This document shows positions 5,515 through 47,943 of a stretch of DNA of 64,000 bases, piece after piece. The notes beneath the pieces are model-generated. The model saw only the letters and a list, made by a program, of their open reading frames with translations, did not search any database and had not been told where the DNA came from. How positions within the stretch are numbered: position 1 is the stretch's first letter; each line of letters begins with the position of its first letter. The position numbers and the translations under genes were made by a program. The stretch is from Voacanga thouarsii. Lineage: Eukaryota; Streptophyta; Magnoliopsida; Gentianales; Apocynaceae. The DNA lies in assembly GCA_026120185.1 (NCBI GenBank), contig JANUWF010001659.1, positions 5,270,001-5,334,000 on the forward strand, written 5' to 3'.

Positions 5515-8500
5515 GGGAGTATTGCTTAATATTCTATCCCTCCTTTATCATTTTTGGTCCCTTTGGAGATGCTTTATTGTGTTAACTTTTGGCCAATAAG
5601 GACATTGTCCAGTTCAAGTGTGGGGAAGTGGTGTGGTGATATTCTTTGTCCAAGTTTTGTCAATATTTTGGTGTTTTCTTAGTGTTGAGTTACTTTGGAA
5701 AAATTTTGAATTTTGATTTTTAAAATTTGAAGAAATTTGGAGCTAAACTAAAATTGTTTGTTTATAATGGAATTATGATTTTCTTTTTAACTTTAGATAT
5801 GAATTTGTCATTCATTATGGTTTGATTTTTATTAAAAGGTAAACTTTGGTGTGAAGTTGGATTTTTGCTAAGACTTAAGAGTTTAAGTTAACATTAGTTA
5901 TATTGGGTTTTTGAGTTTTGTTTTATTCTTTAAGTTTGAATATGGGTGTTGATTAATTCTTATTATGGATTTAAAATTTTCTTGACTTTGAATTCTGAAT
6001 AAAGAATATGAGGGAAAAAAATTTTGAGTGAAAAAAGAAAAAATGTGAGTTGAAAAAAATGTTGCTTTAATTGGTTGAAAAAAAAAATAGAGACCTTTGC
6101 AAAAAAAGGGGGCCAATACGATGAGTGGAAGAGAAGAAACAAAAAAGTATCACACTCTCGTAAGGCTATCCCGAAGGTAAGAAGGTAAGGAAAGAAAGAA
6201 GAAGGAAAAAGAAAATTGCTAAAAAAAATGATAAATGATGACTACAAAGGGGCCAATATGGTACATGAAGAGAAATCCATACACTAAAGGCTATCAATTC
6301 CCTAAGACATTGAAAAAAAAAATAGAATGAAGTGTTTTCCTTGTTTAACTAACTTAAGTTGTGTAAATTTGAGCTTATAATGCTTAAATTGGTTAAATGG
6401 CTTAACTTGCATGATTTATATTATCTATGTTTTTTGCTTGAGGAGTTAGATGATCTTCTTGCACTAGATATAAGCTTGTTAAAGTTAACTTTGATGGCCT
6501 TGGGATTGTTTAATTTAATACATGACTTTACAAGGTTTTAGAAGGGTTGAATGAATGACTAGTATGTTAGGTATCTCATGCATATCATATATGGTGCAGC
6601 AAAAAAATAAGAACAAGATACCATCCCAAGATCTGCATACGTGTGGAAAACAAGACATAAAGAGAAGAAGATCACCTTTCTAATGAGTCCCTATCATTAA
6701 AATTTTCCTTTCTCATCTGAGACGCGATCTAGCAATCCTCTTGATCAAATACCACGAGAGTTGAATGTCCAGCCACTACAATCACAATCTGTGACTATCT
6801 CTAACAGAAATCCATACGGAGAATCACACTCAAGCACCAGGATTTTTCTATGCTAGCAGAAAACAACAATGGTGGCTAGGGTTTTATGAAGATCAACGAG
6901 AGAGAAAAAGAGAAGAGAAGGGAGTCGTGTATCCCTAGGGTTTTTGGAGTTGTTTTTCGTGTGTTCTTCATCAATAAGGAATTGTGTATATATCCCATAT
7001 ATTACACGAAAATCTCTTGCTGAAAATACTCCATCTAAGAATTCTAAAATAGTTAGAATTCCTTAATTGTAATTGGAAATATCAAGTTCTCACAATTATA
7101 AATTAGACCATAAATTTTAACTAATTATAATTTGGCCACAACAACTTCTCTTTCTTGCAATTAACCCTACTATGTTATCAAATAACATCTTGAGTATATA
7201 ATCCTCTATTGTGTGTGACCTATTAGGTTTCCCTGTCAATTGGTAGCAAACATAAATTAATCCAAATGTCTTTGAGATTAGCAATCCATAATTAATTAGA
7301 ATTAATCATATTAATTCTAATCAGGATTGGTATATTAATTCATCATTTAATAAACCTATATTCCCAAATCATGGGTAGTATCTAGCAACACATCATGACC
7401 ATCCAAGAGTCCAGGAAGTCAAGTGGCTTGACATGAACCCTTCAATAACAAACTACAGTGCAATTAGCTCCTTTAACGACACAATATCTCATTCAGTTTG
7501 GAGTACAGAATTAGTGCCAACTCCCTCCAGAATATTTATTAATTCTGGCCTAAATATAATAGTACTTGTACTGGAAACCCACTACTTTAGATGTATATCA
7601 ATTGGAACTGTTTCCAATACACAGATGTCTTGGCCAAGGACCCCTTGAGTAGTAATTCCTACAAGTGACCATGAGATATTCGCCCCTACTATTAGGAGTG
7701 GTGAATCCTTTATTGACCTTCTCAACTACTTTCATTTACCTCACAATGTACCTAATATCCATCCCATAGGTGGTCCTCGACCTGGCTCCAGAGATTGGAA
7801 TCAAAGTACAATGCTCAGCAAACAAAGTACCTTGGAGATCTCAAGTCTAAGGATACTTGCATGCTTGCTATATTGAGATTATATCACTAGCACTAAATAG
7901 TTATCCATGTGATTATCTCATAGCTAGGTCATCCAATGTACTTGTTCTCTTAACAAACATCCACGTGTTAACTTTGAGTATCTCAATACTCACGAATATG
8001 AGAAACGCCGCCTAATCAAATCAGGAAGTCTAACACATGCTAGTCTTAACTCAATAATGATGTCCTTTCAAAGTACTAAGACTATACAGTATAGTAGAAA
8101 TCTCATATCATGATCTCTATCATGATTTGCTTAACACAGTATTGTACTAGCGACTTTATCTAATAGTTATTTTACATAAAAGTAAACAAAAGATACTATA
8201 AGATAAATAACGCCTTTTATTAAAAAAAAAAAAATGTGTCATATACAACGTACAAGTGATTGGCTCTAAGGAATAACGCTAACAAAGTATGTGTTTAAGG
8301 TTGGAAAAAGGTTATGTCTTCATTATGGATGAATTTTCTAAGGGAAATTTTGCTAAATTATTTTGTCTTCTTTTAAATGCTTAGTGTTTTAAATCTTATT
8401 TGCTTGAGGACAATCAAATGTTCTAGTGTGGGGCTATATGGTAGGGGCTAAAATTACCATTATTTTCCTAGTTATTTGAGCTTTTTTTATGATACATTTG

Positions 8501-9936
8501 TTGTAAAAATAACTAGGCATATTTATTCCTATTTTACAGTTTGCTTGTAAAAAGGATTTTTGGCAAATTTGTATAGATTTGAGTTAAAATCAAGCAGAAA
8601 GTGAATAATTCCAGAATGTACCAGGCACCAGGCCTAGCCAAGGGACCAGGCGCCTAGTCCATTCTGGTCCAGCAGAGGAATTCGAGCTACATTTAGTACA
8701 AAAGCAGAACAGGCCTGGCTCCAAGTTTGGCAAGTGTAGCAGGTGCTAGGTCCATTCTATTTGCCGAGGAGAAAGGAACAAAAACATAGCAAAAATAGAG
8801 GCAGAACAAAGTGCACCTAGTGCCAAGTGGGTCGAAGGTACCTGGCGCCTAGTATGCTCTGGAAGTCAAATATTCTATGCATGAATTTAGAAATTCTCTA
8901 ATGATTTTGGTATTTTTTTGAATCCTACTCAGCTATGACTTCCTAAGCCACGAATTTAGCATCCAAGAGGCTTATAAAAGCATAAGAAAACACAAGAGAT
9001 GGGTGTGATTTAAGGGATCCAAGCAAGCTACTCAATCACCACTCAAAGAAGTATTGTTCAAATGAGGTTTTCAAGAGAAGAAGAAAGGCTTATCTATGAG
9101 TTTTGTCTTTTATCATTTGTTTACTTTTCTAGCACAATGTCATGATTAATATTTTGATTGCAAATGGATATTATTTTGGAGATTATGATTTTGAGTTAAT
9201 TAGAACTTTTGATCAGTTGATTGTTGCTCTTAAGATTTGATTACTTATTTTTCTTACGGAGTTGGTTGATTGATTTTTGTTATTAACTTCCTTGAAAAAG
9301 AGGTTGGTAATAACTTCAATTAATTAATTTCATATTTGTTATCTCTAACTTTCTTGAAAAATGGGATAATTGGTTAGAACATTGGTAATCAATGGTTAGT
9401 TGACGATTACTAGAATATGGATTCATTGACAAATTTCATGTTTTAAATCACCAAAAATACAGGGGTTTATATGAGGATTTATTTGAATACATCTTTTGCA
9501 TAAGTTAGTTGAGATAGAATATGCTCACTAATTTAACTAGAAGCTAGTGAGTCTATGGATTGCAAACAAAGTGGGCATATATTAAACCCTTCATGATGTC
9601 AAGACGACAATTAATTGTGATGAATACTATGTGGTTTATTATTGTGTTATCAAGATGATTGTTTAGTTATATGAAATTACATCCTTGAGTTATTCTATTT
9701 TTATCTTTATTTATCTTCATTTTTAGTGTCTTCTTATTTTATTGGCTAAACAATAAAGATTTGGATCAAGTAAGGTGGGAGCCTAAGTTCTCGTAGATTC
9801 GATACTTGCTATTTCTTATACTCTACGATAGGTATACTTGCCCGTATGTATGGTTTTAGTGGTTGGCATTTTATTTAAAGTTTGATTGATTGTGTAATTT
9901 GTTGGTAATATTTTTTACAATAAAAAACACGCATCA
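5515..9936 (+). mobile_element. A2: 3' internal part and 3' LTR of an Athila/Tat-type element
   Basis: The LTR is 8439-9936 (TGGTAGGGGCT to ACGCATCA, 1498 bp), preceded by a G-rich GTGTGGGGCTATA tract acting as polypurine tract. Upstream, 5515-6564 plus 8290-8438 is the non-coding 3' region, matching in reverse 37476-38640. It contains a second tract, TTCAAGTGTGGGG, near 5616. A copia solo LTR interrupts it at 6565-8284. The LTR end joins sequence (GACCTAGCCTAATTATC) that matches the inside of the geminivirus array near 12393, so A2 inserted into that array. No gag or pol is visible. Confidence 0.75.
6565..8284 (-). mobile_element. Solo LTR of Ty1/copia family C
   Basis: 1720 bp. On the minus strand it starts TGTTAGCGTTATTCC at 8284 and ends near 6565 with the family end that reads TGTTAGGTATCTC on the plus strand. 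It matches the LTRs of C3 over its whole length. Flanks TAGTA (6560-6564) and AAGTA (8285-8289) fit a 5-bp target duplication with one change. There is no primer site or polypurine tract beside it, so it is a solo LTR left by LTR-LTR recombination. The antisense frame at 7433-7648 recurs in other copies of this LTR and is not treated as a gene. Confidence 0.85.
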
Positions 9937-10293
9937 GACCTAGCCTAATTATCAGAAATAGCCATATCCTCTATCAATTGTGCACTAGATCACAAGAATA
10001 AACCTCATCAACGTGGCAAGCCTGTTTAAATATATAATGTTGTATTCTTTTTGTATCTCGCTTCACGACCAATGTAAAATAGAAAATGTTTTTTTTTTAA
10101 TTAGCATGTCCATTGTAAAGGGCCCATCAAACTTCACTTTGAGTTTTTTTTATCTTCAATGTTGACACCGCTCAACATATCATTTTAAATTGTTTACACT
10201 TTTAAATTTAATCACAATTTGCCACTAAAGTTGTTTCAATTTTTGATATATTTAACCAACAAAATGCACAAGAAGTTTGTCGGGATGCCATCT

Positions 10294-11075
10294 TCATTAT
10301 AAAACACCATACGACAATTAATTGAAAATGTTGCAATACTTGGGAAACTACTTTCCCAAGTTATAAAATATATAAGGGCATTACTAGAAATATTACCGTA
10401 ATTACCCCCTGTACGACCTATATCATCTTTGAAAGACATAAAAATAATTATGGCCAAAAAATGCTCTTAACTCAACAAATCAAATTACACGACTAAGCCC
10501 CATTTCTTGAACAACTTTTTTGAACCTAAGAAACACCTTAAATCGATCCGTTACATCGGACCTGAGATGAAGATTGGCCTTGAACCCATTATAACCGACA
10601 GGAGTCCCAAAAACATCTGCAAATGATGGCTTTGCATCTTGTTCGGGCCTACTGTCAAGTACCTGGAAAAGTGACAATACTCCTTAAATTAACAGAAAAG
10701 GCTTAACATCACTCTCCCCCATGTCGTCTTTATTTTTTATAATTGGAGAATTTACAATAGTAAATGATCCATTAAAATTTGTAGACCCCAAATAGATACT
10801 ATTTCTTCTTCTTTGCAAATGCAGAATCCCCAGTAAAGGCATTGTAAGAAAGTCTTCAATCACACAAGCATTATTAATGCCCGACCCAGGAACAATAGTT
10901 TCATCTACCATACTAGTACGCGCATCTGTAATGATCCTATAATTTTCACGGAATCTACATCTGTTAATATAAAACAAATTCCTATTTCCCCACCCATTAA
11001 TATAATTTCGACCACTCCTATTATTATTACTGCTATAAATTGGTCTAATCCTATAAACATCTTGACAATGACCCA
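10294..11075 (-). pseudogene. Geminivirus-like coat protein remnant, unit 1
   Basis: Broken open frames at 10977-10684, 10677-10480 and 10457-10294 on the minus strand follow one protein in order: an Arg/Asn-rich N-terminal part, then RRRNSIYLGSTNFNGSF, then VLDSRP with DVFGTPVGYNGF, then DRFKVFLRFKKVV, and a C-terminal part with SNALIYFITW and a terminal FYN. This order (basic nuclear-localisation region, beta-rich core, terminal Y-N) and the length of about 260 codons fit geminivirus coat proteins, which build the twinned capsid and bind ssDNA. Unlike units 2 and 3, the stop after FYN is lost. It lies downstream, in virion sense, of the origin at 11471. At least two frame breaks make it non-functional. 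Confidence 0.7.
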
Positions 11076-11396
11076 GTTGTAACTTTCACCAAAATTGCCA
11101 GCCTTTATTCACATCTAACAACTCATACATTCAGTTTAAAACCACACAAAAGTTCAAATGTCATATTAGATATACCTTTAGTTTGAATACAACAAACTCT
11201 TTGGCTAGTGTAACACAATGTCATTTACATATTGACTGTTAAATCATCACCCCGAATAAATAGCCTCCAATTATACATTCCTGATATAATTGACTGCACC
11301 ACACATGTACAGTTTATTAGGTCAAATAGCGTACCATGTTGGCACATGAGACCCACAACATTAACTTTACATCCCAAATTTAAATTTTCAATTTGA

Positions 11397-11407
11397 ATTT
11401 AAATAGT
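11397..11407 (-). promoter_or_regulatory. TATA-like element ahead of coat-protein remnant
   Basis: Minus strand CTATTTAAATT lies between the origin and the coat-protein remnant. Unit 3 has the same CTATTTAAATTC near 14953. The placement suits a virion-sense promoter, but AT-rich DNA makes chance matches common. Confidence 0.35.
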
Positions 11408-11470
11408 TCCTAACAGTAAAGTCACTCCAATTGGTGTGAGCCCCACAATTTCGTCACTCCAAATCCGGTG

Positions 11471-11497
11471 GCCATCCGGTAATATTAAATGGATGGC
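11471..11497 (-). promoter_or_regulatory. Geminivirus-type origin stem-loop, unit 1
   Basis: Arms GCCATCC and GGATGGC make a perfect 7-bp stem. The loop, read on the minus strand, holds TAATATTAC (11487-11479) exactly. In geminiviruses Rep nicks this nonanucleotide to start rolling-circle replication. It lies on the same strand as the coat-protein sequence, as in the virus. A direct repeat GTCACTCCAA (11421 and 11453) sits nearby, on the coat-protein side. Confidence 0.85.
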
Positions 11498-12390
11498 TGG
11501 ATACATGGAGTGTTGAGATGTGCCCAAAGGACTTCTATAAATTCCATTGTAGTTGCTCCAATTCAAGGCACAAATTAAATTGCAATGAGTTATGTAGCAT
11601 CTAAAGTGAGTTTATTATTACTTAAATGCCACTAAGTCTTCACGTTTTAAAGAAATGAATCTGTCTACCCACCATAGTAATGGAGTCCTCCAATATTAAA
11701 TCACTTGAGCAATACTTCAGCTCGAGAGATCAAGCTCGCATTCCCAGCCTGGCCTGAAACATCACTACAGTGTCTCAGAGGACATTGCCTTGTATCAACC
11801 ATTGTGAAATTCAATATAAACTAACGACCCTTTTAATGCACAGGGAATTGTAACAATGTTTCTTTTTTATACTTGATTGATCAGTCCTGACCAATTGCAG
11901 GCAGAATAAAAATTCCCTATTAACTGCCCCATTGATTTACACTATTACGGGCAGTCATCCATCTCAATGAATGATCCTTGTCTGTGGAAAATCTCGTACG
12001 AGGTGACACAATAAGACATTCGCTCAAAGACTAAATTCTACAAATTAAAGGCTTTTTGGAAACTCTCAAGTGCAAAGAAGCCAACAGAGATGAAGTATCG
12101 AAAACCGACGACAACTGTACATTCAATGTGTTCACTTAAAATGACATCGATATTTTAGCATGTCCGTCAAAAACTAACTCCTAAAATACTGTGTCGGTCA
12201 ATATCATCTTAATATGCCAAAGGAAGTCAATAATTCTATATTCCACAAGTCCTTTCTCAACAAGCCAAATAATCAATTTCAGTAGGTCCAGCATTAAACA
12301 TAGGCCCAACCATGTGTAAAGATGATATTGGGTCATCTGTTTCCGAAGCTAGTTCAAATAGTATATCCAATACTATTCAATTGGACCCAA
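11498..12390 (+). pseudogene. Decayed region where Rep is expected, unit 1
   Basis: A plus-strand TATA box (TATAAA, 11536-11541) is followed by an ATG in the context ATGCCACTAAGTCT and about 0.75 kb that aligns along its length with 15055-15920. This is the position and direction of the complementary-sense Rep gene. A short frame SSRFKEMNLSTHH near the start resembles a worn Rep N-terminus, but the rolling-circle HUH motif, the Walker A motif and any long frame are absent. The call rests mostly on position. It could instead be other viral or flanking DNA carried with each unit. Confidence 0.35.
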
Positions 12391-12751
12391 CCTAATTATC
12401 AGAAAAAGTCATATCCTCGATCATTGTTGCACTAGATCACAAGAATAAACCTCAGCCACATGGCAAGCCAATTTAAATATTTAATGTTGTATTCTTTCTG
12501 CATCCCACTATGCGGCCAATGTAAAATAGAACATTTTTTGTTTTTTAATTAGCATATCCATAGTAAAGGGCCCATGAAACTTCACTTTGAGTTTTTTTTT
12601 ATTTTTTTTATCTACAACGGTGACACCTCTCATGATATCAGTTTAAATTGTTTACACTTTAAAATGTATCCATAATTAGCAACTGAAGTTGTTTCAATTT
12701 CTGATATACGTAACCAACAAAATGCACAAAAAGATTGTTGGCATGCCATAT

Positions 12752-13471
12752 TCAATTATAAAACATCATACGACTGTTAATTGAAAATTTTACAATATTT
12801 GGGAATTTACTTTCCTAAGTTCTCTAATAAATAAGGGCATTACTATGAATATTACCATAATTAATCCATGTATGACCTATATCATCTTCGAAAGATGTAT
12901 AAAAACAATTACAGCCAAAGAATGCTCTGAATTGATCAATTGAAATTACACGACTGGGCCCCTTTCCTTGAACAACTTCTTTGAACCTAATCAACACCTT
13001 AAATTAATCCCAAAAACATCTACAAATGATGTCTTTGCATCTTTTCTAGGCCGACTGTCAAGCACTAAGGAAAATGACAATACTTCTTAAATCAACGGAC
13101 AAGGCTTAACATCACTCTCTCCCATGTCAACTTCATTTTTTATTATTAGAGAATTTACAATAGTAAATGATCCATTAAAATTCACTGACCCCAAATGGAT
13201 CCTATTTCTTCTTCTTTGTGAATGCAGATTCCCCAATGAAGGTATTGTAAGAAAGTCTTCAATCACACAAGCACTATCAACGGCCGACCCAACAACAATA
13301 GTTTGATCTACCATACCCTATACACACATATGTACCATGCTTGCAATTTTCATGGAATCTATGTCTATTAATATAAAAAAAATTGTATTTCCCCTCCTAT
13401 TAACATAATTACCATTTCTCCTACTATTATTACTTCTATAAATTAGTATTATCCTATATACATCTTGAAAA
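12752..13471 (-). pseudogene. Geminivirus-like coat protein remnant, unit 2
   Basis: The N-terminal half is open at 13314-13087 and contains VIEDFLTIPSLGNLHS, RRRNRIHLGSVNFNGSF and MGESDVK, matching units 1 and 3. A deletion of roughly 55 bp near 13004 removes the segment containing the GYNGF motif. The C-terminal part follows with a stop directly after FYN (12752). The gene has no origin in its own unit because unit 2 ends near 13708. Non-functional. Confidence 0.65.
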
Positions 13472-13911
13472 TGAACTAGTTGTAACTTTCACCACAATTG
13501 CCATATTTATTCACATCTAACAACTCTTAGATTCAATTTAAAACCCTACAAAAGTTCAGATATCATATCAGATATACCTTTAATTTGAACACAACAATCA
13601 CATTGGCTACTGTAACACGATGTCGTTTTCATACTAATTATTTAAATCTTCACCCCGAAGAAATAGCCTCCAATTATACATTCTAGATGAGATTGACTGC
13701 ATCACACTTGTTTTTTAATTAGCATATCCATTGTAAAGGGCCCATCAAACTTCACTTTGAGCTTTTTTTATCTACAACGGTGACACCGCTCAAGATATTA
13801 GCTTAAATTGTTTACATACTCAAATGTAACCAGAATTAGTAGCTAAAGTTGTTTCAATTTCTAATCTATTTAACCAACAAAATTCACAAGAAGATTGTCG
13901 GGAATCCACCT

Positions 13912-14613
13912 TTAATTATAAAACACTATACCACTATTATTTGAAAATGTTACAATACTTGGGAATCTATTTTCCCAAGTTATAAAATAAATAACGGCAT
14001 TACTACGAATATTACCATAAGTACCCGTTGCATGACCTATATCAACTCTGAAAGACGTACAAAAAAAATTACGACCAAAGAATGCTCTGAACTCATCAAA
14101 TGAAATTACACGACTGGGCCCTTTTTCTTGAACAACTTCTTTGAACCTAATCAGCACCTTAAATAGATTTGTTGCATCGGCCTTGCCATGAAGATCATCC
14201 TTGAACCCATTATAACCAACAGGAGTCCCAAAAACATCTGTAAATGATGGCTTTGCATCTTTTCTAGGCCTACTGTCAAGTACTAGGAAAAATGACAATA
14301 CTCTTTCGATCAACGGACAAAGCTTAACATCACTCTCCCCCAAAAAATAGATCTTATTTCTCCTTTTTTATGAATGCAGGCTCCCCAGTGAAGGCATTGT
14401 AAGAAAGTCTTCAATCACACAAGCACTACCAAAGGTCGACCCAGGAACAATAGTTTCATCGACCATACCAGTACACGCATATGTTCTATGACTATAATTT
14501 TCATTGAATCTACGTCTATTAATATAAAATAAATTCCTATTTCTCCTCCCATTAACATAATTACCACCTCTCCTATTATTATTACTGCTACAAATTGGTC
14601 TAATCCTAGACAT
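13912..14613 (-). pseudogene. Geminivirus-like coat protein remnant, unit 3
   Basis: This is the best preserved copy. The minus-strand frame 14343-13912 is open for 143 codons, from MGESDVK through VLDSRPRKDAKPSFTDVF, NLFKVLIRFKEVVQEKG and FFGRNFF to SNAVIYFITW and a final FYN stop. The N-terminal part is in another frame at 14613-14368 (basic, Arg/Asn-rich, then VIEDFLTMPSLGSLHS). About 65 bp present in units 1 and 2 is missing between them near 14343. The spacing of motifs along the frame is that of a geminivirus coat protein. The origin at 15024 lies upstream in virion sense. It cannot encode a full protein as it stands. Confidence 0.75.
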
Positions 14614-15023
14614 CTTGAAAATGATCTAGTTGTAACTTTCACCGAAATTGCCAGCATTTAATCACATCTAACAACTCCTACATTTAATTTAAAACCCCAC
14701 AAAAATTCAGATATCATATGAGATATACCTTTAATTTTAATTCAACAATCTTGTTGGCTAGTGCAACACAATGTCGTTTTCCTATTGACTGTTTAAATCT
14801 TCACCCCAAAGAAATAGCCTCCAATTATACATTCCTAATATAATTGATCACACCGCAGTTGTACAATTTATCCGGTTAGATGGCCCATCATGTTGGCATG
14901 TGAGACCCACAACATAAACTTTACATCCCAAATTCCAAATTTTCAATTTGAATTTAAATAGTTTCTAACAGTAAAGTCACTGTAATTGGTGTGGGGCCCA
15001 CTATTTATACACTCCAAATCGAG

Positions 15024-15054
15024 CGGCCATCTGGTAATATTAAATGGATGGCCG
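15024..15054 (-). promoter_or_regulatory. Geminivirus-type origin stem-loop, unit 3
   Basis: Arms CGGCCATCT and GGATGGCCG form a 9-bp stem with one G-T pair. The minus-strand loop carries TAATATTAC (15042-15034) exactly. A GTGGGGCCCAC palindrome lies just left of it (about 14992-15002), similar to GC-rich elements of geminivirus intergenic regions. Confidence 0.85.
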
Positions 15055-15920
15055 GACACGTGAATGGCTATGATGGGACCCAAGGGACTTCTATAAATAC
15101 CACTCTAGTTACTCAAATTCAGGGTACGTATTAAATTAGAATGAGTTCTGGAGCATCTACAGTGAGTTAATATGCCACTAAGTCTCGACGATTTAAAGAA
15201 GTGAATCTATCTACCCACCATAGTAAAGGAGTCCTCTAACATTAAATCACTTGACTAATACTTCAGCTCAAGAACATATGAATCCTTTGTAACATCTGAC
15301 CTCATAGAGATCAAGCTCGCATTCCCTGCCTAGCCTTAAACCTCACTACGATGTCTCAGAGGACATTCCCTCTATATCGACCATTATCAAATTCAATATA
15401 AACTAGAGACCTCTTTCAATGCGCAGGGAATTGTAACAGTGTCTGTTTTGACACCTGGTTGATCGGTCCTGTGCAATTGCAGGCAGAATACAAATTCTCC
15501 ATTAATTGCCCGATTGATTTACACTATCACGGGCAGTCTTACTTCTCAATAAGTGATTTTTGTCGGTGACAAAATTGAACATTCCCTCAAGGACAAAATC
15601 CTACAAAATAAAAGCTTTTCTAAAACTCTCAAGTGCAAAGATGCCAACAGAGATGAAGTACTGACAACCAACGACAACTATACATTCAGATGTGTTCACT
15701 CAAAATGACATCGATTTTTGGCATGTCAGCTGGAAACCAATGCCTGAAATACTGTGCCAGTCAATGTCATCTTCGTATGCCAGAAGAAGTCAATTATTCC
15801 AAATTCCATAGTGCCTTTCTTTCCAACAAGCCAGATCATCAATTTTAGTAGGCCTAGCCAGATGCAATGATGGTATTGGGGAGGATGTTTCCGTGAGCAT
15901 TAAATATAGGCCTTTCTTTT
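15055..15920 (+). pseudogene. Decayed region where Rep is expected, unit 3
   Basis: TATA box TATAAAT at 15092-15098, then ATGCCACTAAGTCTCGACG at 15172, colinear with unit 1 but with a roughly 20-bp insertion near 15275. Stops occur in all frames. The first codons after a one-base shift read SRRFKEV, suggestive of a Rep N-terminus but too short to prove it. The segment ends near 15920 with rearranged pieces of the unit-1 end, then T-rich DNA. Confidence 0.35.
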
Positions 15921-22462: not shown

Positions 22463-24855
22463 TGTAAAACCCCGCTACCTACATACCCCAAAAAGGGCGG
22501 GGATGTCGCAACGTCCGTAGGACAAGGGGTCTTTATAACTAGGTAATAGAAAACATAGAAGGAAATAACTTAATAACGGACTTATTGCAATCCCATAACA
22601 AATACTTTTACAAGTCTTGAAATAAATAGATGGTAAGTAAAATCTCTAACAACTAAATACATCAAGACAAATCTTCCAAGCTCACGGCATCATACGTAAA
22701 TTAACCTTCCAAGTAAGATCGACTTGAAGACATGATATAAAATGTGTGTGAAATATTTTCCAGTAAGTCCTATGTGTGCTCATGGTATTTAAGGAAAAAC
22801 CAGCTCATGTATGCAAGTTTTGAACAAGTTATATCAAAAAGTCTGCAATTCCAGAAATTTACCTTTGAACACTAAGTGGTGTTTTATCTGCATTTATAAA
22901 GTAAAAATGTTTATCTTGAAAAGAAATAACCATTCTAATAAAATTGACTATGAAGTTATGCATCATGAATGGACATGGCACCACAGCTTGTGCACCATGT
23001 TAAGGGAACAGTCTGGATGCCACACTTTATGCATCATGACAAGAGAATGATCAGGATGCTACACTTTGTGCTTTCTGATACAAGGTGGGTGTATAGCCCT
23101 CCGGTGAGATACTCCTCTATCTCTACACTCAAACATACCGGTTGTCCACTCTAGAAATAAACAGTCCACCTGAATTGTACTACTAGCTCAGACTTGCCTG
23201 ACCAACAAGAACTGTCATCTTGTCTAGGCAGGGTTCAACTCTTAGAGGTGGCCTCCTACTGAGAGACTTACCCAACCCTTCAAAGGCTAGTCCTAGTAGT
23301 CTATCCTTCTTGAGTACTCAATGTTGTGTTTATTCCACTTGGAAAATATAAAATCAATGAAGAGTTTTTTTTTTTTTTTAAAGTAGCAATTATAGTTTCC
23401 AAACAACTTTAGGTAAAATTTCGTTTAAAGAAAATTTATTGTTTTGTTCGAAAAAATTTTTTCTTGACAAAAATTATTTTATTTTAGAAGAAGAAATAAA
23501 TTGTCAATAATTGCACTCAAGGTACATTTTTCATGACAATCAGTGCATTCGACTTGCAGAAACACATTTGTTCACAAACATCTTTATTCAAGAACTTATC
23601 TAATCTCTTGCTTTTCCTTGATACAGTAGCCTTCCAAGATAGTTCAAGGCAACCTAACCCTATCTGGGGTATGTACAGAGTATAGGTCCTTACATCTTGG
23701 CAATATTTGCTTTAAATAAATAATTCCTAGTCTAACATGCTTAAGCTCAACTAGATACAACAATATCTAGTTATGACAACAATGCCTGAAGCTTTATCAC
23801 TAATTGATAAGGTATTTTATAGAATAAAATTAATTTGATAAGTTAAAATAAATAGGTGTTATAAATAATAAATAAATAATAAACTATAATATTAAGTATT
23901 TATTAACAAATAATAAATAATGAGTAATATTAATAAATAAAATTAGTAATAAATAATGAGTACTATTAATAATAAATCCTAAATAATATTGGTAATAAAT
24001 TATAAATAATATTATTACAAATAATAAGTAATATTAATAGTAGATTATAAATAATTTTAATAATAAATAATAAGTAACAAATATAATTAATAATAAATAA
24101 AATATTCTCATATAAATAATATTTAAGAGTGTAAATAAAAGTTTTAGTAAGGCTATCTAATAATAATAAGAATATAAAAGACATTTGATAGTAATTAATT
24201 CCAACATATTATTTATATCTAATAATGTTTAATAAAAATATTCTATTTATTTATGTAATAAAATACCAATATTTTAAATAATTATTAGTTTTGAAAATAT
24301 TTGTGTTCACCAAAAATAGCTAATTAAATAAAATAATAATATTAATTATATTAATAATAATAATGATAGTAAGAATAATACTAAAAATAATAAAAGTAGT
24401 TCTTACAATAATTTTTAATGACAATTGTGGAAACAACCTCTTGGCAAATGTAGGGGGAAGGTTGCGTATATATTGGTTCCCTCACCCTACTCCTACAAGG
24501 CGGGGAGCGCTTGGCGCACCAGGGCTAGCCCTAAAAAATAGTGAAATACTAGAGAAAATTTATATACATATTTATACGCGCATGGATTCAACAAATAACA
24601 TGTAAATTTATCCAAAAATAAGCTTGTATTAATATACAACACAATAAGGGTGATATTCTATAAGCCATAATATTATTTATAGGTTTATTGAAAAATATAA
24701 CATCTTGAAGGCATAATCAACAATGATGGTTTAATGTCTATTGTACATCAAACATCCATAAAGCTCTTAAGCATAATGAACATACAATTATCTTAAAGCA
24801 TAATCCCTACTTCATGAGTCAAAACATTAATTCAATGCTTCATGTCTTAAATCTA
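22463..24855 (-). mobile_element. Inverted 3' portion of a G-family LTR
   Basis: Starts TGTAAAACCCCGCTACC on the plus strand, the reverse complement of the LTR end GGTAGCGGGGTGTTACA at 28831. It aligns in reverse to 26638-28831 over its length, ending by clear match at about 24797 (ATTATCTTAAAG) and possibly reaching 24855. There is no primer site at its LTR end; copia protease sequence abuts it instead. The interior includes long runs of TAAT/AAT-rich sequence (about 23820-24370). Confidence 0.8.
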
Positions 24856-25529: not shown

Positions 25530-28500
25530 TGTATAACCCATCTAAACCTACCTTAGAGTAAGAGAGATGGGATGCATATCATGTCATCATGCATAAAATA
25601 TATCTCTTGAATGATTTTGTGTGCCTCAGAATTGTGGTTTATGGGTTGTATGATTTATTTGTGCTTGTTAAATAGAAATGGTAAAAAGGTAATTTTACTT
25701 GAGGTTGAAATAGGAAGTTGGCTTAATGCTTAGATAAGAAGAAGATTTGGTTGAGAAAATAAGAACAAGAGTTAGTGTGGTTAAGTGGTTAGAGCATTGT
25801 GATTTAATCTCTAAGGTCTTGAGTTCGAATCCAATCACCTAAGTTTTATTCATATTTATCTTTACCAATGTTTGCATTTTCTTCTTTCTTACATTCCTTA
25901 AAGTTAGGAATGTTCTTTTAGGGAAGAAACAATGGTAATGTCTTAACCATGGGATCTTGTTTTAAAAAGAATCTTGTCTCCATTATTTTTGCAAGCCTTG
26001 TCTCCATTGCTTAGGATTTTGAAATTCTAGCACTTGTGGGATAGGAGTTGGCCGAAAATGTGGAGGAAGAATAGGAAGAGGTTTCAATCAAATCACCATA
26101 GCTATTCCTTCAAGAACTTCATTTTCTTCTTGTTCTTGTTTTGGTTAAAATCTTGAAAAATTTTCAGATTTTCTTCAAAGCTGGTTTTCAAAATTTGCAG
26201 CAAGCATTCTCTAGCTAATTCTTGCAAAGAACCAACCATCTTGTGTGAAGTTGAAGGCTAAAATGCATTTGATTTTCACAGCATTGCATACTGCACCAAA
26301 CCAGAATTTTTTTCCGGCAAACAAGCAACCTTTGAACATGAATATTGTGCTATTCGTTGGTGCTCAAGAACACTTGGAACTTTCGCCTTTCTTCTCCAAG
26401 ATGATGGCTGGAAAACCACCATTAATGGAACTTCAAACACCCCTAAAATCTAGCAGCAAAATCATTTCAAAGAAGACAAAAAATCCTACACAAAACCATT
26501 TCAAATCCTAACAGTTCTTAAGCTTCAATTCCAGATTTTTTTTTTTTCCAGCTTTGCCTAATCAATGCTAAGGCCAAATTTCTTCATCAAACTTCATCAT
26601 GTTTTGGCCATAATGCAGCCATGGACAGAACCTCTTGGCTTTAAGATCATTGTATGTTCATTATGATTAAGAGCTTTATGGATGTTTGATGTATGATTGA
26701 CATTAAACCATCATTGTTGACTATGCCTTCAATATGTTATATTTTTCAATAAACCCGTAAATAATATTATGGCTAATAGAATATCACTCTTGTTGTGATG
26801 TATGTTAATACAAGCCTATTTTTGGATAAATCGACATGTTATTTGTTGGATCCATGTCTGTATGAATATGTATGTAAATTTTCCCTAGTATTTCACTGTA
26901 GTCATTAAAATTTATTGTAAGAACTACTTTTATTATTCTTACTATCATTATTACTATTAATATTATTATTTAATTTAATTGACCAATTTCAGTGAACACA
27001 AATATTTTCAAAATTAATAATTATTTAAAATATTGGCATTTTATTATATAAATAAATAGAATATTTTTATTAAACATTATTAGATATAAATAATAATATA
27101 TTGGAATTAATTAATATCAAATGTCTTTTATATTCATATTATTATTACTTAGCCTTACAAAAACTTTTATGTACACTCTTAAATACTATTTATATCAGAA
27201 TAATTTATTTATTATTAATTTTATTTGTTATTGATTATTAAAATTATTTACAATTTATTATTAATATTACTTAGTTTTTTTTAATAATATTATATATTAT
27301 TCATTACCAATATTATTTAGGATTTATTATTAATAGTACAAATTATTTATTACTAATTTTATTTATTAATATTACTTAATATTTATTATTTGTTAATAAA
27401 TAGTTAATATTATAATTTATAATTTATTTATTATTTATAACACCTATTTATTTTAAATTATTAAATTAATTTTATTCTATAAAATACCATATCAACTAGT
27501 GTTAAAGCTTAAGGCATTATTGTCATAACTAGATGTTGTTGTATCTAGTTGGGCTTAAGCATGTTATACTAGGAATTATTTATTTAAAGAAAATATTGTC
27601 TGGATGTAGGGACTTATACCCTGTGTTTACCCCAGGCAGGGTTAGGCTACTTGAACTATCTTGAAAGGCTATTATATCAAGGAAAAGCAAGAGATCAGTA
27701 AGTTCTTGCATAATGATGTTTGTGAACAAATGCATTTCTGCAAGTCGAATGCACTAATTGTCGGGAAGATGTACCACGAGATGCAATTATAGACAATTTA
27801 TTCCTTCTTCTAAAATAAAATAATTTTTGTCAAGCAAACAAATTTTCAAGTAAAACAATAAATTTTCTTTAAATAAAATTTTACCTAACGTTGTTTGGAA
27901 ACTATAATTGCTATTTCAAAAAAAAAAAACTCTTCATTGATTTTATATTTTCCAAATGGAATAAACATAATGTTGAGTATTCAATAAGAGTAGACTATTA
28001 GGATTGGTCTTTGAAAGGTTGGGTAAGTCTCTTAGTAGGAGGCCACCTCTGAGGGTTGAACCCTACCTAGACAAGACGACAGTTCTTGTTGGTCAGGTTG
28101 GTTGAGCTAGCAGTACAGTTCAGGTGGACTATTTATTTTTGGAGTCGAAAACCGATATGTTTGGGTGTAGAGATGGAAGAGTATCTCAATCGGTGGGTCG
28201 TATACCTACCTTATATCAGCATGCACAAAAGTGTGGTATCCTGATCATTCTCTTGTCATAATACACAAAGTGTGGCATCCTCACCATTCTCTTGACATGG
28301 TGCACAAAGTGTGGTGCCATGTCCATTCATGATGTATGGCTTCATAGTCAACTTTATTAGAGTGGTTATTTCTTTTCATGTTGAGCATTTTTACTTTACA
28401 AATGCTAATAAAACACCGTTCAGTGTTCAAAGATAAATTTCTGGACTTACAAACTTTTTGTTATGACTTGTTCAAAACTTGCATACATTAACTGGTTTTT

Positions 28501-28831
28501 CCTTAAATACCATGAGCATACATAGGACTTACTGGGAAATATTTCTCACACCTTTTATATCATGTCTTCAGGTTGATCCTGCTTGGATAGTCAATTTACT
28601 TATGCTGCCATGAGTTTGGAAGATTTATCCTGATGTATTTATTCGTTAAAGATTTTAGTTACCATTTATTTATTTCAAGACTTGTAAAAGTATTGTTTTG
28701 GGATTTTAATAAATCCGTTATTAAGTTATTTCCTTCTATGTTTTCTATTACCTAGTTATAAAGACCCCTTATCTTAAGGGCGGGGCGACATCCCTGCCCT
28801 TTTTGGGGTACATTGGTAGCGGGGTGTTACA
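25530..28831 (+). mobile_element. 5' LTR of G element
   Basis: Starts TGTATAACCCATCTAAACC and ends GGGGTGTTACA, followed by a primer site, so it is the 5' LTR. Length 3302 bp. Up to 26637 it matches the 3' LTR 33856-35036. There the 3' LTR continues (TTCTCCATC) while this copy jumps to TTAAGATC, so about 1 kb or more including the (CT)n tract is deleted. Flanking base block CAAAA precedes it. It sits inside the displaced C2 copia sequence. Confidence 0.8.
25774..25840 (+). other. tRNA-like segment inside G 5' LTR
   Basis: A-box-like TGGTTAAGTGGTTAGAGC and B-box-like GAGTTCGAATCC, spaced as in a tRNA gene. This is the best preserved of four copies. A weak TTAG/CTAA pairing closes the ends. 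Not a working tRNA by its stems. Confidence 0.55.
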
Positions 28832-44874: not shown

Positions 44875-45255
44875 ATGTTTATGATTGAGATAAATACTAC
44901 CTTTAGAAATAAGATATTGGTATTAGATACTGAATGTGGATATCATTTGTGCAATAACTTGCAGGGACTAAAGAGCAGTAGAAGGCTAGATAAGGCGATG
45001 TGGACCTACGTACTGCAAATGGGGCAAAGGTTTGCTGCACTTGCTGTGGGGATATACGAGCTGAACCTGCCTTTAGGATTAATTCTAGAATTGAAAAACT
45101 GTTATTATGTACCAGTTTTAATGAAAAACATTATCTCAATTGCGTGTTTAGATTTATGTGGATTTCATTTAATATTTAAGAATAAATGTTTTTCTTTTTC
45201 ATTGAATGTATTCATTATAGTTCAGCAACTTTGGTTAACGGTTTATATGTTCTAG
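44875..45255 (+). pseudogene. C3 protease and pre-integrase region
   Basis: Open frame of 126 codons starting MFMIEINTTF, with LDTECGYHLCNN at the protease active site, then LPLGLILELKNCYYV and LMKNIISIACLDL, the usual lead into the integrase. It stops at 45255 where the frame shifts into the next segment. Confidence 0.8.
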
Positions 45256-46043
45256 ACTTGGATAATCTATTTCTCAATATAAACAATAAGAAACCTAAAA
45301 TAGATAATTCTAACACCTCTTACTTATGGCATTATCGTTTGGGCCATGTAAATGAAAATCGTGTTTCTAAGTTACACACGTTTGGTGATTTAGGGTCATT
45401 TGATTATGAATCATATGGCACATGCGAGTCTTGTTTACTAGGTAAAATAATTAAAACTCGTTTTCCAGGAAAAGAAGAATGGGCCGAGGAGTTATTAGAA
45501 CTCATACATTCTGATGTATGTGGCCCAATGTCAATACAAGTAAGAGAAGGTTACAATAATTTCATAACTTTTATCGATGACTTCTCACGATACGGGTATT
45601 TGTATTCAATGAAATACAAATCTAAGGCCTTTGAAAGGTTCAAAGACTTTAAGAATGAAATAGAGAAATAACTTGGCAAAAGTATTAAGACTCTAAGATT
45701 TGATCGAGTAGGAGAATACTTGAGCCAAGAATTTCTGAGTTATGTTAGAAATAATGGGATATTATCTCAATGGACTCCACCACATACACCTCAACATAAC
45801 AGTGTATCTGAGAGAAGGATTCGAACCCTTCTAGATATGATACGAGCCATGATAGCTTTTGCAGACCTACCAAAATCGTTTTGGGGGCATGCAATAGAAA
45901 CTTCTGTTTATATATTAAACAGATTTCTGATAAAATCGGTTAATACTACCCCATTTGAGATGTTCTTTGGTAACAGACCAAAGTTATCTCACTTGCGAGT
46001 TATGGGGTTGTCATACCTTTGTCAAAAGACCACAGTCAGATAA
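45186..46043 (+). pseudogene. C3 integrase
   Basis: HHCC zinc-binding block WHYRLGHVN ... CESCLLGK, then IHSDVCGPMS and FIDDFSRYGYLY with the first catalytic Asp. A stop at 45669 is followed by FDRVGEYLSQEF (second Asp region) and TPPHTPQHNSVSERRIRTLL carrying the catalytic Glu. A further frame break near 46010 leads to the frame 45955-46380 (FVKRPQSDKLDSKFDKCLF), the usual copia C-terminal domain. All catalytic residues are present, but the frame is broken at two points. Confidence 0.9.
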
Positions 46044-46380
46044 ACTTGATAGTAAGTTTGACAAGTGTTTGTTTATGGGATATCTACAAGAATCTTTTGG
46101 ATATTACTTCTACCTACCCTCTGAAAACAAACTGTTTGTTTCGAAGCATGCCATCTTCTTAGAGAAGGAACACATGCTCAAAGGGGACAGTGGGAGTAAA
46201 ATTGAACTTAGTGAAGTTCATGAAGATCAAACAAACAAGGATCAACCGTCTAACCTCACATCTATTGAGAGAATAGATAACCTTCTAATACATAAGAACC
46301 TCGTAGATCTAGTAGGATACGTGTGGCACCTGAGAGATATGAATTTCTCATTAGTGACTACAATGACGTATTGCTCATAG

Positions 46381-47943
46381 ATAAAGAATGTTCTGAATAG
46401 TTCAGAATTTGGCAAATGGCTTGAGGCCATGAAGTCAGAGATAGATTCTATGTATGACAACTAAGTATGGACTTTGGTTGATTCACCCAAAGGAATTAAA
46501 CCTATTAGGTGCAAGTAGGTTTTCAAGTAGAAAACGGACATGGATGGTAACTTAGTTAACTATAAAGCACGTCTAGTGGCGAAGAGTTATCGTCAACAAC
46601 ATAGTATTGACTATGATGAAACCTTCTCACTAGCAGCCATGTTAAAATCCATAAAGATACTCCTAGCCATTGCTGCTCATCATGATTATGAGATTTGGCA
46701 AATGGATGTCAAAATAGCTTTCCTAAATGGAAATCTGACTGAGGAAGTGTATATGACACAACCTGAGGGTTTCAAATCTAGTGATAGCACAAAGGTGTGC
46801 AAGCTGCAAAGGTCTATTTATGGACTTAAACAAGCTTCTAGGAGTTGGAACATCCATTTTGATGAAACAATCAAAGAGTTTGGTTTCATTCAAAACATGG
46901 ATGAGCCTTGTGTATACAAGAAGGTTAGTGGGAGTGCAATCGTTTTCTTACTGTTTTATGTAGATGACATATTGCTAATAGGAAACGATATACCTATCTT
47001 GCAAACGGTTAATGTTTGGTTGTCCAAACAATTCTCCATGAAAGACCTTGGAGAAGGAACCTATATTCTCAGAATAAGAATCTATAGAGATAGATCCAAA
47101 AGGTTGCCAGGTCTTTTGCAGTCTACATACATAGATAAAGTGCTAAACAAGTTTAGCTTGGATCAATCCAAAAAAGGATTCTTACCCATGTCACATTGTG
47201 TAATCCTTTCAAAGTTGATGTCTCCTAAGACACAAGTTGAAATGGATCACATGAGTAAGATTCCATATGCCTCAGCAGTTGGATCTATCATGTACGCTAT
47301 AATATGTACTATGCCCAATGTATCTTGTGCTCTCAGTTTGACGAGCAGATACCAATCTGACCCTGGTGAGGGTCATTGGGTAGCTGTAAAGAACATCCTT
47401 AAGTACTTACGAAGGACTAAGGATGTGTTCTTAGTATATGGAGAAGGTGATTTGAAAATAAACGGGTTTATTGATGCCAGTTTTCAATCTGACAAAGATG
47501 ATTTCAAATCACAATCTGACTATGTGTTTAGGTTGTGCGGAAGGGCAATAAGTTGGAAAAGTTCCAAACAAGAGACTATTGCCAACTCTACGACAAAAGT
47601 TGAGTACATAGCTACTTCTGAAACAGCTAAGAAGGCTGTTTGGATCAAGAAGTTTATGACGGAAATGGGTGTGGTTCCTAGTGTTGTTGGTCCAATAACT
47701 TTGTATTGTGACAACAACGAAGCCATTGCACAAGCAAAGGAGCTGCAGTCTCACCAACGATCCAAACATGTACTGCTATACTATCACCTGATCCGAGAGA
47801 TCATAGATAAGAATGATGTAAAAATAGAGAGAGTTCCCATGGATGAAAACATAGTTGACCTGCTTACAAAAGCACTATCCCAAAAGAAACATGATTGTCA
47901 TGTTAAGTCATTCAATATTAGATACATGAATGATTGGCTCTAG
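46381..47943 (+). pseudogene. C3 reverse transcriptase and RNase H
   Basis: From 46540 the frame is open for 467 codons. Reverse transcriptase blocks: KARLVAKSYRQQHSIDYDE, WQMDVKIAFLNGNLTEEVY, LQRSIYGLKQASRSW and the catalytic FYVDDILLIGND. RNase H: GFIDASFQSDKDD with the first Asp, TTKVEYIATSE with the Glu, LYCDNNEAIA with the third acid, and a C-terminal IRYMNDWL. Stops at 46378, 46462, 46516 and 46528 separate it from the integrase. Longest intact coding run in the window; by itself it has no start of its own. Confidence 0.92.

What the first reader, a model, noticed from the sequence alone, without database searches (positions are those of the whole stretch)
9937..15920. Endogenous geminivirus-like array in a plant chromosome
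Coat-protein-like sequence in three copies and two stem-loops with exact TAATATTAC in the coat-protein sense occur together, in geminivirus order and orientation. Integrated geminivirus DNA is known from few plant lineages, and this copy has the virion-sense half (coat protein) rather than only Rep.
Basis: partly seen in the sequence, partly recalled or inferred. Interest (0 to 1): 0.9.

Follow-up and report, generated by a model that had tools for sequence, protein, structure and literature searches.

The report
Fossil two-part geminivirus: DNA-B array
This stretch of chromosome holds three decayed head-to-tail copies (one partial) of what is likely the second genome segment (DNA-B) of an ancient two-part plant virus, and the same genome also carries Rep-gene pieces attached to the same replication-origin region, so both halves of the virus were likely built into the plant's chromosomes.

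Summary
The array is real and geminiviral, but it is not the coat-protein half of a geminivirus. No Rep was found. That is the layout of begomovirus DNA-B (NSP + MP). The host assembly (1.35 Gb) holds at least 66 Gemini_coat and 98 Gemini_BL1 matches. Separate copies of the window's 220-nt origin region (11413-11632) lead into Rep genes, as expected of the common region that DNA-A and DNA-B of one virus share. A second family in the genome has an unrelated common region beside its own Rep and MP. A coat protein from that family matches capsid structures in the PDB; the window-type protein does not, and a tree separates the two. The three units differ about equally (K80 0.16-0.17) with little codon-position bias, so they probably decayed neutrally after integrating as near-identical copies. 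Endogenous geminiviruses are known; a DNA-B array traced to its Rep-bearing partner was not found described in the papers searched (a Rep-anchored survey mentions 'potential' NSPs). New variant of a known kind.

The parts
9937..15913 (.). Endogenous DNA-B array: three head-to-tail units, the middle one truncated
   Evidence: Direct repeats; blastn of the array against the window found no further copy
9937..12383 (.). Unit 1, 2447 nt, one circle length. The 12383-to-9937 join is continuous at 7 of 12 type I loci elsewhere, so it is not a deletion peculiar to this array
12384..13711 (.). Unit 2, truncated: NSP side only. It joins unit 3 at a 4-nt overlap (13708-13711), equivalent to a deletion of about 1.2 kb
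13708..15913 (.). Unit 3: NSP, origin and MP; right end locally rearranged
   Evidence: sequence
10239..11085 (-). NSP (BV1)-like relic, copy 1, broken
   Evidence: PF00844 4.7e-6 and 4.2e-4, 5.6e-7; pieces match NSP-like frames of other loci
12824..13488 (-). NSP-like relic, copy 2, broken
   Evidence: PF00844 0.012, 5.2e-4; about 85% nt identity of its unit to units 1 and 3
13912..14625 (-). NSP-like relic, copy 3, broken (stop and internal deletion)
   Evidence: PF00844 2.6e-10; C-terminal piece 55-71% aa identical to open frames of ten type I loci
11413..11632 (.). Common region of unit 1 (hairpin and TATA-like motif), shared with Rep-bearing pieces
14967..15187 (.). Common region of unit 3 (contains CACGTG and GGGACCCAAGGGAC; reading these as G-box and iterons is recalled knowledge)
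11471..11497 (-). Origin hairpin, nonamer 11487-11479
15024..15054 (-). Origin hairpin, nonamer 15042-15034
11713..12395 (+). Movement protein (BC1/BL1) relic, copy 1, broken; start placed by alignment with unit 3
   Evidence: PF00845 1.6e-4, 8.0e-23 at 11829-12212; C-terminal piece 12273-12392 has no Pfam match but matches the BL1 frame of L027
15259..15811 (+). Movement protein relic, copy 3, broken
   Evidence: PF00845 2.3e-7, 6.5e-3, 1.4e-3, collinear; 1.3e-8 and 3.2e-4
8399..9926 (.). Left flank: copy of a host interspersed repeat, whose homology ends about 10 nt before the array

Best explanation
The array at 9937-15913 is likely a head-to-tail concatemer of the DNA-B component of an ancient bipartite, begomovirus-like geminivirus that integrated into the host chromosome and then decayed. 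Shown: tandem units about 85% alike; geminiviral origin hairpins; an NSP/CP-family relic and a BL1 movement-protein relic diverging from each of the two origins; no Rep family match in the array; the same origin region attached to Rep elsewhere in the genome; divergence between units with little codon-position bias. Inferred: in the virus, DNA-B would have been replicated in trans by the DNA-A Rep acting at the shared common region. A multimeric replication product was then likely joined to the chromosome by illegitimate repair (a 4-nt overlap at the unit 2/3 junction), next to a host repeat. Both genes then accumulated stops and indels. The insert now most likely encodes no protein; any present role, for example as a source of small RNAs, is untested.
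For: Gemini_BL1 pieces on + in collinear order (profile 33-64, 69-101, 144-181 in unit 3; 117-151 in unit 1) and 8.0e-23 for unit 1. Gemini_coat on -. A Pfam scan of 106 ORF pieces (85 of at least 35 aa in the array, 21 of at least 62 aa in the 5-kb flanks) gave Gemini_BL1 (5) and Gemini_coat (4) as the only geminivirus families. Genome-wide 66 PF00844 and 98 PF00845 matches, 0 of 14 control genomes for each; 42 of 57 PF00844 matches outside contig C552 have a BL1 match within 3 kb, 25 of these divergent; none of the 98 BL1 matches is on C552, which holds 9 PF00844 matches. Common region: window unit 1 and five isolated copies agree at 164-179 of 215-219 nt (four) and 117/146 (one cut by its locus end); 100-nt flanks lie in the shuffled range. 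Rep beside it: L025 AL1 2.9e-37, L009 3.4e-20, L022 1.5e-7. Within one locus Rep-side and MP-side origins match 192/219 (L009), 159/172 (L017), 321/363 (L010), while type I and type II match only 20/23. CP test: L010 CP matches PDB capsids at 1.3e-8 and 7.8e-4; the window piece and the L009 and L017 frames match no capsid at E<=10. Tree: NSP-like against CP rows split 100/100. Decay: K80 0.159-0.169; third codon positions are the most changed in only 1 of 8 comparisons. Between families third positions are in excess, 0.58-0.66 against 0.33-0.48, so these were selected viral proteins before integration.
Against: No sequence annotated as NSP or BC1 could be fetched: two protein searches with window pieces found nothing, and neither did viral-contig scans. 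NSP identity therefore rests on architecture, the PDB contrast and a tree in which one CP (L010) is on a flagged long branch. No CP was recognised for the type I Rep-bearing component. Of the five isolated origin copies, L012's has no Rep beside it (it runs into MP sequence, so it may be deleted DNA-B) and L021's Rep evidence is weak (AL1_M 0.0049). A genome-wide Rep count could not be obtained. 15 of the 57 PF00844 matches outside C552 have no BL1 within 3 kb, and at least one of the 57 (C443:745190, the L010 CP) is a coat protein. One MP stretch (15402-15569) does show more third-position changes (12/56 against 8/56 and 7/55). The structure model was useless (pLDDT 36).
Confidence: 0.92

Rival explanations
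1. The PF00844 relic is a true coat protein of an unusual one-component geminivirus that carried CP plus a BL1-type movement protein, and Rep was lost from this array by deletion.
For: PF00844 covers both CP and BR1/NSP. Camellia endogenous transcripts drawn with CP, BC1 and Rep genes, and a 4.6-kb putative integron, have been reported (PMC7758297, sections 23 and 24).
Against: The unit closes without Rep in the window and at 7 of 12 type I loci. Rep sits on separate pieces that share the origin region with unit 1 but not its flanks. Coat proteins from the same genome behave differently in PDB searches and in the tree.
Confidence: 0.05
2. The array is contamination or an assembly artefact from a virus infecting the sequenced plant.
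For: Multimeric geminivirus DNA occurs in infected plants (recalled knowledge).
Against: The longest open piece in the array is 151 aa, units differ by about 15%, and the array lies in a 6.64-Mb contig among host repeats. BL1 matches lie on 41 contigs.
Confidence: 0.01
3. The array is retained by selection as a source of antiviral small RNAs or another host function.
For: Copies are many and clustered; a functional role of endogenous geminiviral sequences is proposed in the literature (PMC7758297 abstract).
Against: Little sign of coding constraint between units. No expression data were available.
Confidence: 0.05

Closest known systems
DNA-B component of bipartite begomoviruses
   Same: NSP-family gene virion-sense, BL1/BC1 MP complementary-sense, TAATATTAC hairpin between them, about 2.5 kb, common region shared with a Rep-bearing component (given as about 180 nt in PMC2974675 passages, and PMC8540022 passages)
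   Different: Integrated, decayed and tandem; NSP too diverged for the word-based protein search; common region about 220 nt; no exogenous relative identified
Endogenous geminiviral sequences of yam, tea, tobacco and others (PMC5014472 passages; PMC7758297 sections 17, 19, 23, 24)
   Same: Tandem repeats (yam, tobacco), mostly truncated genes, TAATATTAC origin (yam, tea), clustering
   Different: The survey was anchored on Rep and mentions only 'potential nuclear shuttle proteins' in Dioscorea alata and Camellia sinensis near Rep loci. Here the array is DNA-B only and its common region is traced to a Rep-bearing partner
Olea europaea geminivirus (PMC8000510 and PMC8540022, passages)
   Same: Bipartite, BL1-domain MP, A and B share a long common region
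   Different: Its DNA-B has MP in virion sense and no NSP; a Southern blot suggested it is not integrated
Endogenous geminiviral element of macadamia (PMC8626973, passages)
   Same: Degraded integrated locus
   Different: Figure legend names AC1-AC4 and AV1 genes, i.e. DNA-A type

Membership tests
Endogenous geminiviral element | Geminiviral protein-family matches inside host DNA | tested here: met
   PF00844 and PF00845; host repeat on the left flank
Endogenous geminiviral element | Virion-strand origin hairpin with TAATATTAC | tested here: met
Endogenous geminiviral element | Joined to host DNA on both sides in independent plants | not testable with these tools
   Only one assembly; no reads
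Begomovirus DNA-B | BL1/BC1 movement protein in complementary sense | tested here: met
   Plus-strand PF00845 in units 1 and 3; E 1.2e-15 to 1.4e-30 in type I sister loci
Begomovirus DNA-B | NSP (BV1) in virion sense | tested here: inconclusive
   PF00844 on the minus strand (virion sense); unlike CP in PDB searches and in a tree; no NSP reference available
Begomovirus DNA-B | No Rep gene on the component | tested here: met
   No AL1, AL1_M, AL2 or AL3 match among 106 ORF pieces; unit of 2447 nt closes on itself
Begomovirus DNA-B | Common region shared with a cognate Rep-bearing component | tested here: met
   Clear Rep beside 3 of 5 isolated copies, weak beside 1, none beside 1
Begomovirus DNA-B | Phylogenetic place within Begomovirus | not tested
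   No extant NSP or BC1 sequences in hand
   Window piece: no PDB match at E<=10; sister frames: no capsid match; coat proteins of the same genome do match
Mastrevirus | Mastrevirus-type CP | tested here: not met
   Window type lies apart from the mastrevirus CPs; the L002 CP is the mastrevirus-like one

The most novel reading that the evidence does not exclude
This genome is a fossil bed of whole two-component geminiviruses: at least two, perhaps three, bipartite lineages, probably outside the known genus, whose DNA-B components integrated together with their cognate DNA-A. It would give the first direct minimum age for the two-segment state and ancient NSP and CP sequences that can test whether DNA-B arose by duplication of DNA-A or by capture of a satellite.
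Probability: 0.5. Interest if true: 0.85.

Novelty: new variant of a known kind. Interest (0 to 1): 0.72.

Why it matters
The large survey of endogenous geminiviruses was anchored on Rep (PMC7758297, sections read), and begomoviruses have been dated from integrated sequences in Nicotiana (PMC3095596 passages, which do not contain the term DNA-B). How geminiviruses became two-segmented is open: DNA-B is proposed either as a DNA-A duplicate whose CP became NSP and which gained MP, or as a captured satellite (PMC2858149 passages). A decayed DNA-B whose origin region still matches a Rep-bearing partner in the same genome makes the age of that state, and the NSP-CP relation, directly testable. It also suggests that Rep-anchored surveys can miss DNA-B-only arrays such as this one.

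Tried and rejected
Structure route: AlphaFold on the 151-aa piece gave pLDDT 36; its BFVD search gave 78 matches with E<=10 and 0 with E<=0.001 and was discarded. IMG/VR scans found no relative. PDB searches with window pieces found nothing. Rfam: none at gathering threshold. An empty-site test gave no clear result: right-flank alignments to the repeat copies were weak (best score 56.0 against a shuffled maximum of 48.0, in T-rich sequence). Host identity was not resolved. The genome-wide Rep search (PF00799) was tried ten times, AL3 twice (60, 101) and AL2 once (61); none was answered, so Rep, AL2 and AL3 copies are known only from fetched loci. Rejected: 'coat protein'; chance nonamers; contamination. 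Corrected on checking: L012's isolated origin copy is not counted as Rep-side.
Full report
Observation. The region 9937-15913 is a tandem array of three related units. Unit 1 (9937-12383) is 2447 nt; unit 2 (12384-13711) is truncated; unit 3 starts at 13708, with a 4-nt overlap between the two. Exact TAATATTAC lies on the minus strand at 11487-11479 and 15042-15034, in stems of 7 and 8 bp. Of 91 nonamers in 60 simulated windows none had a stem of at least 6 bp with at least 3 GC. DNA folding gives z -2.18 and -3.05; the four other nonamers of the window have no GC stem and fold no better than shuffles.

What the genes are. On the minus strand, downstream of the origin in the virion sense, four of eight pieces match Gemini_coat PF00844. 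On the plus strand, on the other side of the origin, four of nine pieces match Gemini_BL1 PF00845, the movement protein (2.3e-7, 1.6e-4, 1.4e-3, 6.5e-3), and the whole-genome search scores unit 1 at 8.0e-23. A scan of 106 open pieces (85 of at least 35 aa from the array, 21 of at least 62 aa from 5-kb flanks) gave Gemini_BL1 (5) and Gemini_coat (4) and no Rep, AL2 or AL3 family. A unit with an NSP/CP-family gene and a BL1 gene diverging from one origin, with no Rep, is the DNA-B layout (as described in PMC8540022 and PMC8000510, passages).

Is the unit complete? The junction 12383 to 9937 is continuous not only in the window but at seven of the twelve type I loci fetched (L009, L012, L019, L021, L023, L025, L028), so it is not a deletion peculiar to this array. 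The C-terminal MP piece 12273-12392 gave no Pfam match of its own, but it matches the same 155-aa frame of L027 that holds a BL1 match of 1.2e-15.

The rest of the genome. The window is contig C829:5270001-5334000 of a 1.35-Gb assembly in 1848 contigs. It holds 66 PF00844 matches and 98 PF00845 matches, which the tool calls lower bounds; 0 of 14 control genomes match either. Nine PF00844 matches lie on C552; L002 there is a mastrevirus-like CP, 51% identical over 84% of its length to that of sweet potato symptomless virus 1. Of the 57 others, 42 have a BL1 match within 3 kb, 25 of them divergent; 15 have none. At least one of the 57 (C443:745190) is a coat protein, that of L010.

Common region, the decisive test. 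Using unit 1 as query on 20 fetched loci, a block equal to about 11413-11632 turned up apart from its usual NSP and MP neighbours at five places: L009:1074-1293, L012:5577-5792, L021:723-940, L022:3527-3746 and L025:1-147 (cut by the locus end). Ten of the 79 ORF pieces listed around these were scanned. L025 gives Gemini_AL1 2.9e-37 and AL1_M 2.5e-13. L009 gives AL1 3.4e-20 and 1.1e-9 and AL1_M 8.1e-14. L022 gives AL1 1.5e-7 and AL1_M 1.1e-7. L021 gives only AL1_M 0.0049. L012's copy runs into MP sequence and may simply be deleted DNA-B. Identity of unit 1 to these copies is 164-179 of 215-219 nt for four and 117/146 for L025, against 171/219 between units 1 and 3; the 100-nt flanks of the five copies lie in the shuffled range (shuffled mean 0.62, maximum 0.78), while the flanks of units 1 and 3 match 86/99 and 80/91. 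Within one locus the Rep-side and MP-side origins match better: L009 192/219. This is what the common region of a bipartite geminivirus looks like.

A second family (L010, L011, L013, L014, L015, L017, L018) has a different stem (where a nonamer was found: L010, L014, L017) and its own common region: Rep-side and MP-side copies match 159/172 in L017 and 321/363 in L010, while type I and type II match only 20/23 around the nonamer. L010 carries pieces of Rep (4.1e-38), AL2 (8.4e-16), AL3 (5.9e-27) and CP (2.8e-18); in L017 a third origin copy (7407-7679) lies beside a stretch 89% identical to L010's CP stretch, which supports placing that CP on the same component. L026 is a third NSP-like lineage.

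CP or NSP. PF00844 does not distinguish them. Coat proteins from the same genome match geminivirus capsids in the PDB: L002 2.7e-35; L010 1.3e-8, 7.8e-4 and 0.024. The window piece and its alignment match nothing at E<=10, and the open frames of L009 and L017 match only unrelated proteins at E 0.3-0.8. A tree of 22 proteins separates 11 NSP-like from 11 CP rows with 100/100 support; the L010 CP is on a long branch, which the program flags. L010 CP and L009 NSP-like protein still share 29/126 residues (BLASTP E 2e-4), consistent with CP and NSP being distant relatives. No annotated NSP could be brought in, so 'NSP' is inferred.

History. Pairwise K80 of the three units is 0.169, 0.165 and 0.159. 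In 7 of 8 codon-position comparisons third positions are not the most changed; the eighth, MP 15402-15569, has 12/56 against 8/56 and 7/55. Between types I and II third positions differ at 0.58-0.66 against 0.33-0.48 at first and second. So the proteins were under selection as viral genes, and the window's units most likely diverged after integration from near-identical copies. With plant neutral rates of 6.5e-9 to 1.3e-8 per site per year (recalled, not from a call), K80 0.165 corresponds to roughly 6-13 million years; gene conversion or methylation could shift this either way. The left edge lies about 10 nt from the end of homology to a host repeat (9926); the right edge is in T-rich sequence, and a short piece resembling unit 1 12291-12308 lies displaced there (sequence).

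Literature. Searches (open PubMed Central papers only; seen as listings, with passages or sections of nine papers read) showed no description of an endogenous DNA-B array or of a DNA-B traced to its cognate component. The closest is PMC7758297 (abstract and sections 17, 19, 23, 24 read), a Rep-anchored survey that reports potential NSPs in Dioscorea alata and Camellia sinensis and draws BC1 in Camellia transcripts; its supplementary tables were not seen. The general finding, an endogenous geminivirus, is therefore known; the DNA-B array with a matched partner is the new part.

Noticed in passing
G000:C552:998399-1022943 (L001-L008): Cluster of endogenous mastrevirus-like sequence: nine PF00844 matches on the contig; one CP is 51% identical to that of sweet potato symptomless virus 1; Gemini_mov lies next to another copy.
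   Followed up: partly
L010, L011, L013, L014, L015, L017, L018: A second endogenous bipartite family with an unrelated common region and, in L010 and L017, pieces of Rep, AL2, AL3, CP, NSP and MP.
   Followed up: partly
L026 (G000:C894:8770500-8776500): A third NSP-like lineage; against type II it shows a strong third-codon-position excess (0.51-0.55), so it diverged as a virus.
   Followed up: partly
window 23924-24036 and 27262-27375: Four further TAATATTAC copies without a GC stem, in an inverted pair of host repeats (22463-24422 / 26901-28831).
   Followed up: yes
window 15894-15910: A piece resembling unit 1 12291-12308 lies out of order at the right end of the array, as if displaced during integration or repair.
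   Followed up: partly
window 35987-57381 and 44875-47943: Repeated host elements and a copia-type reverse transcriptase (RVT_2 2.2e-55) in the surroundings.
   Followed up: no
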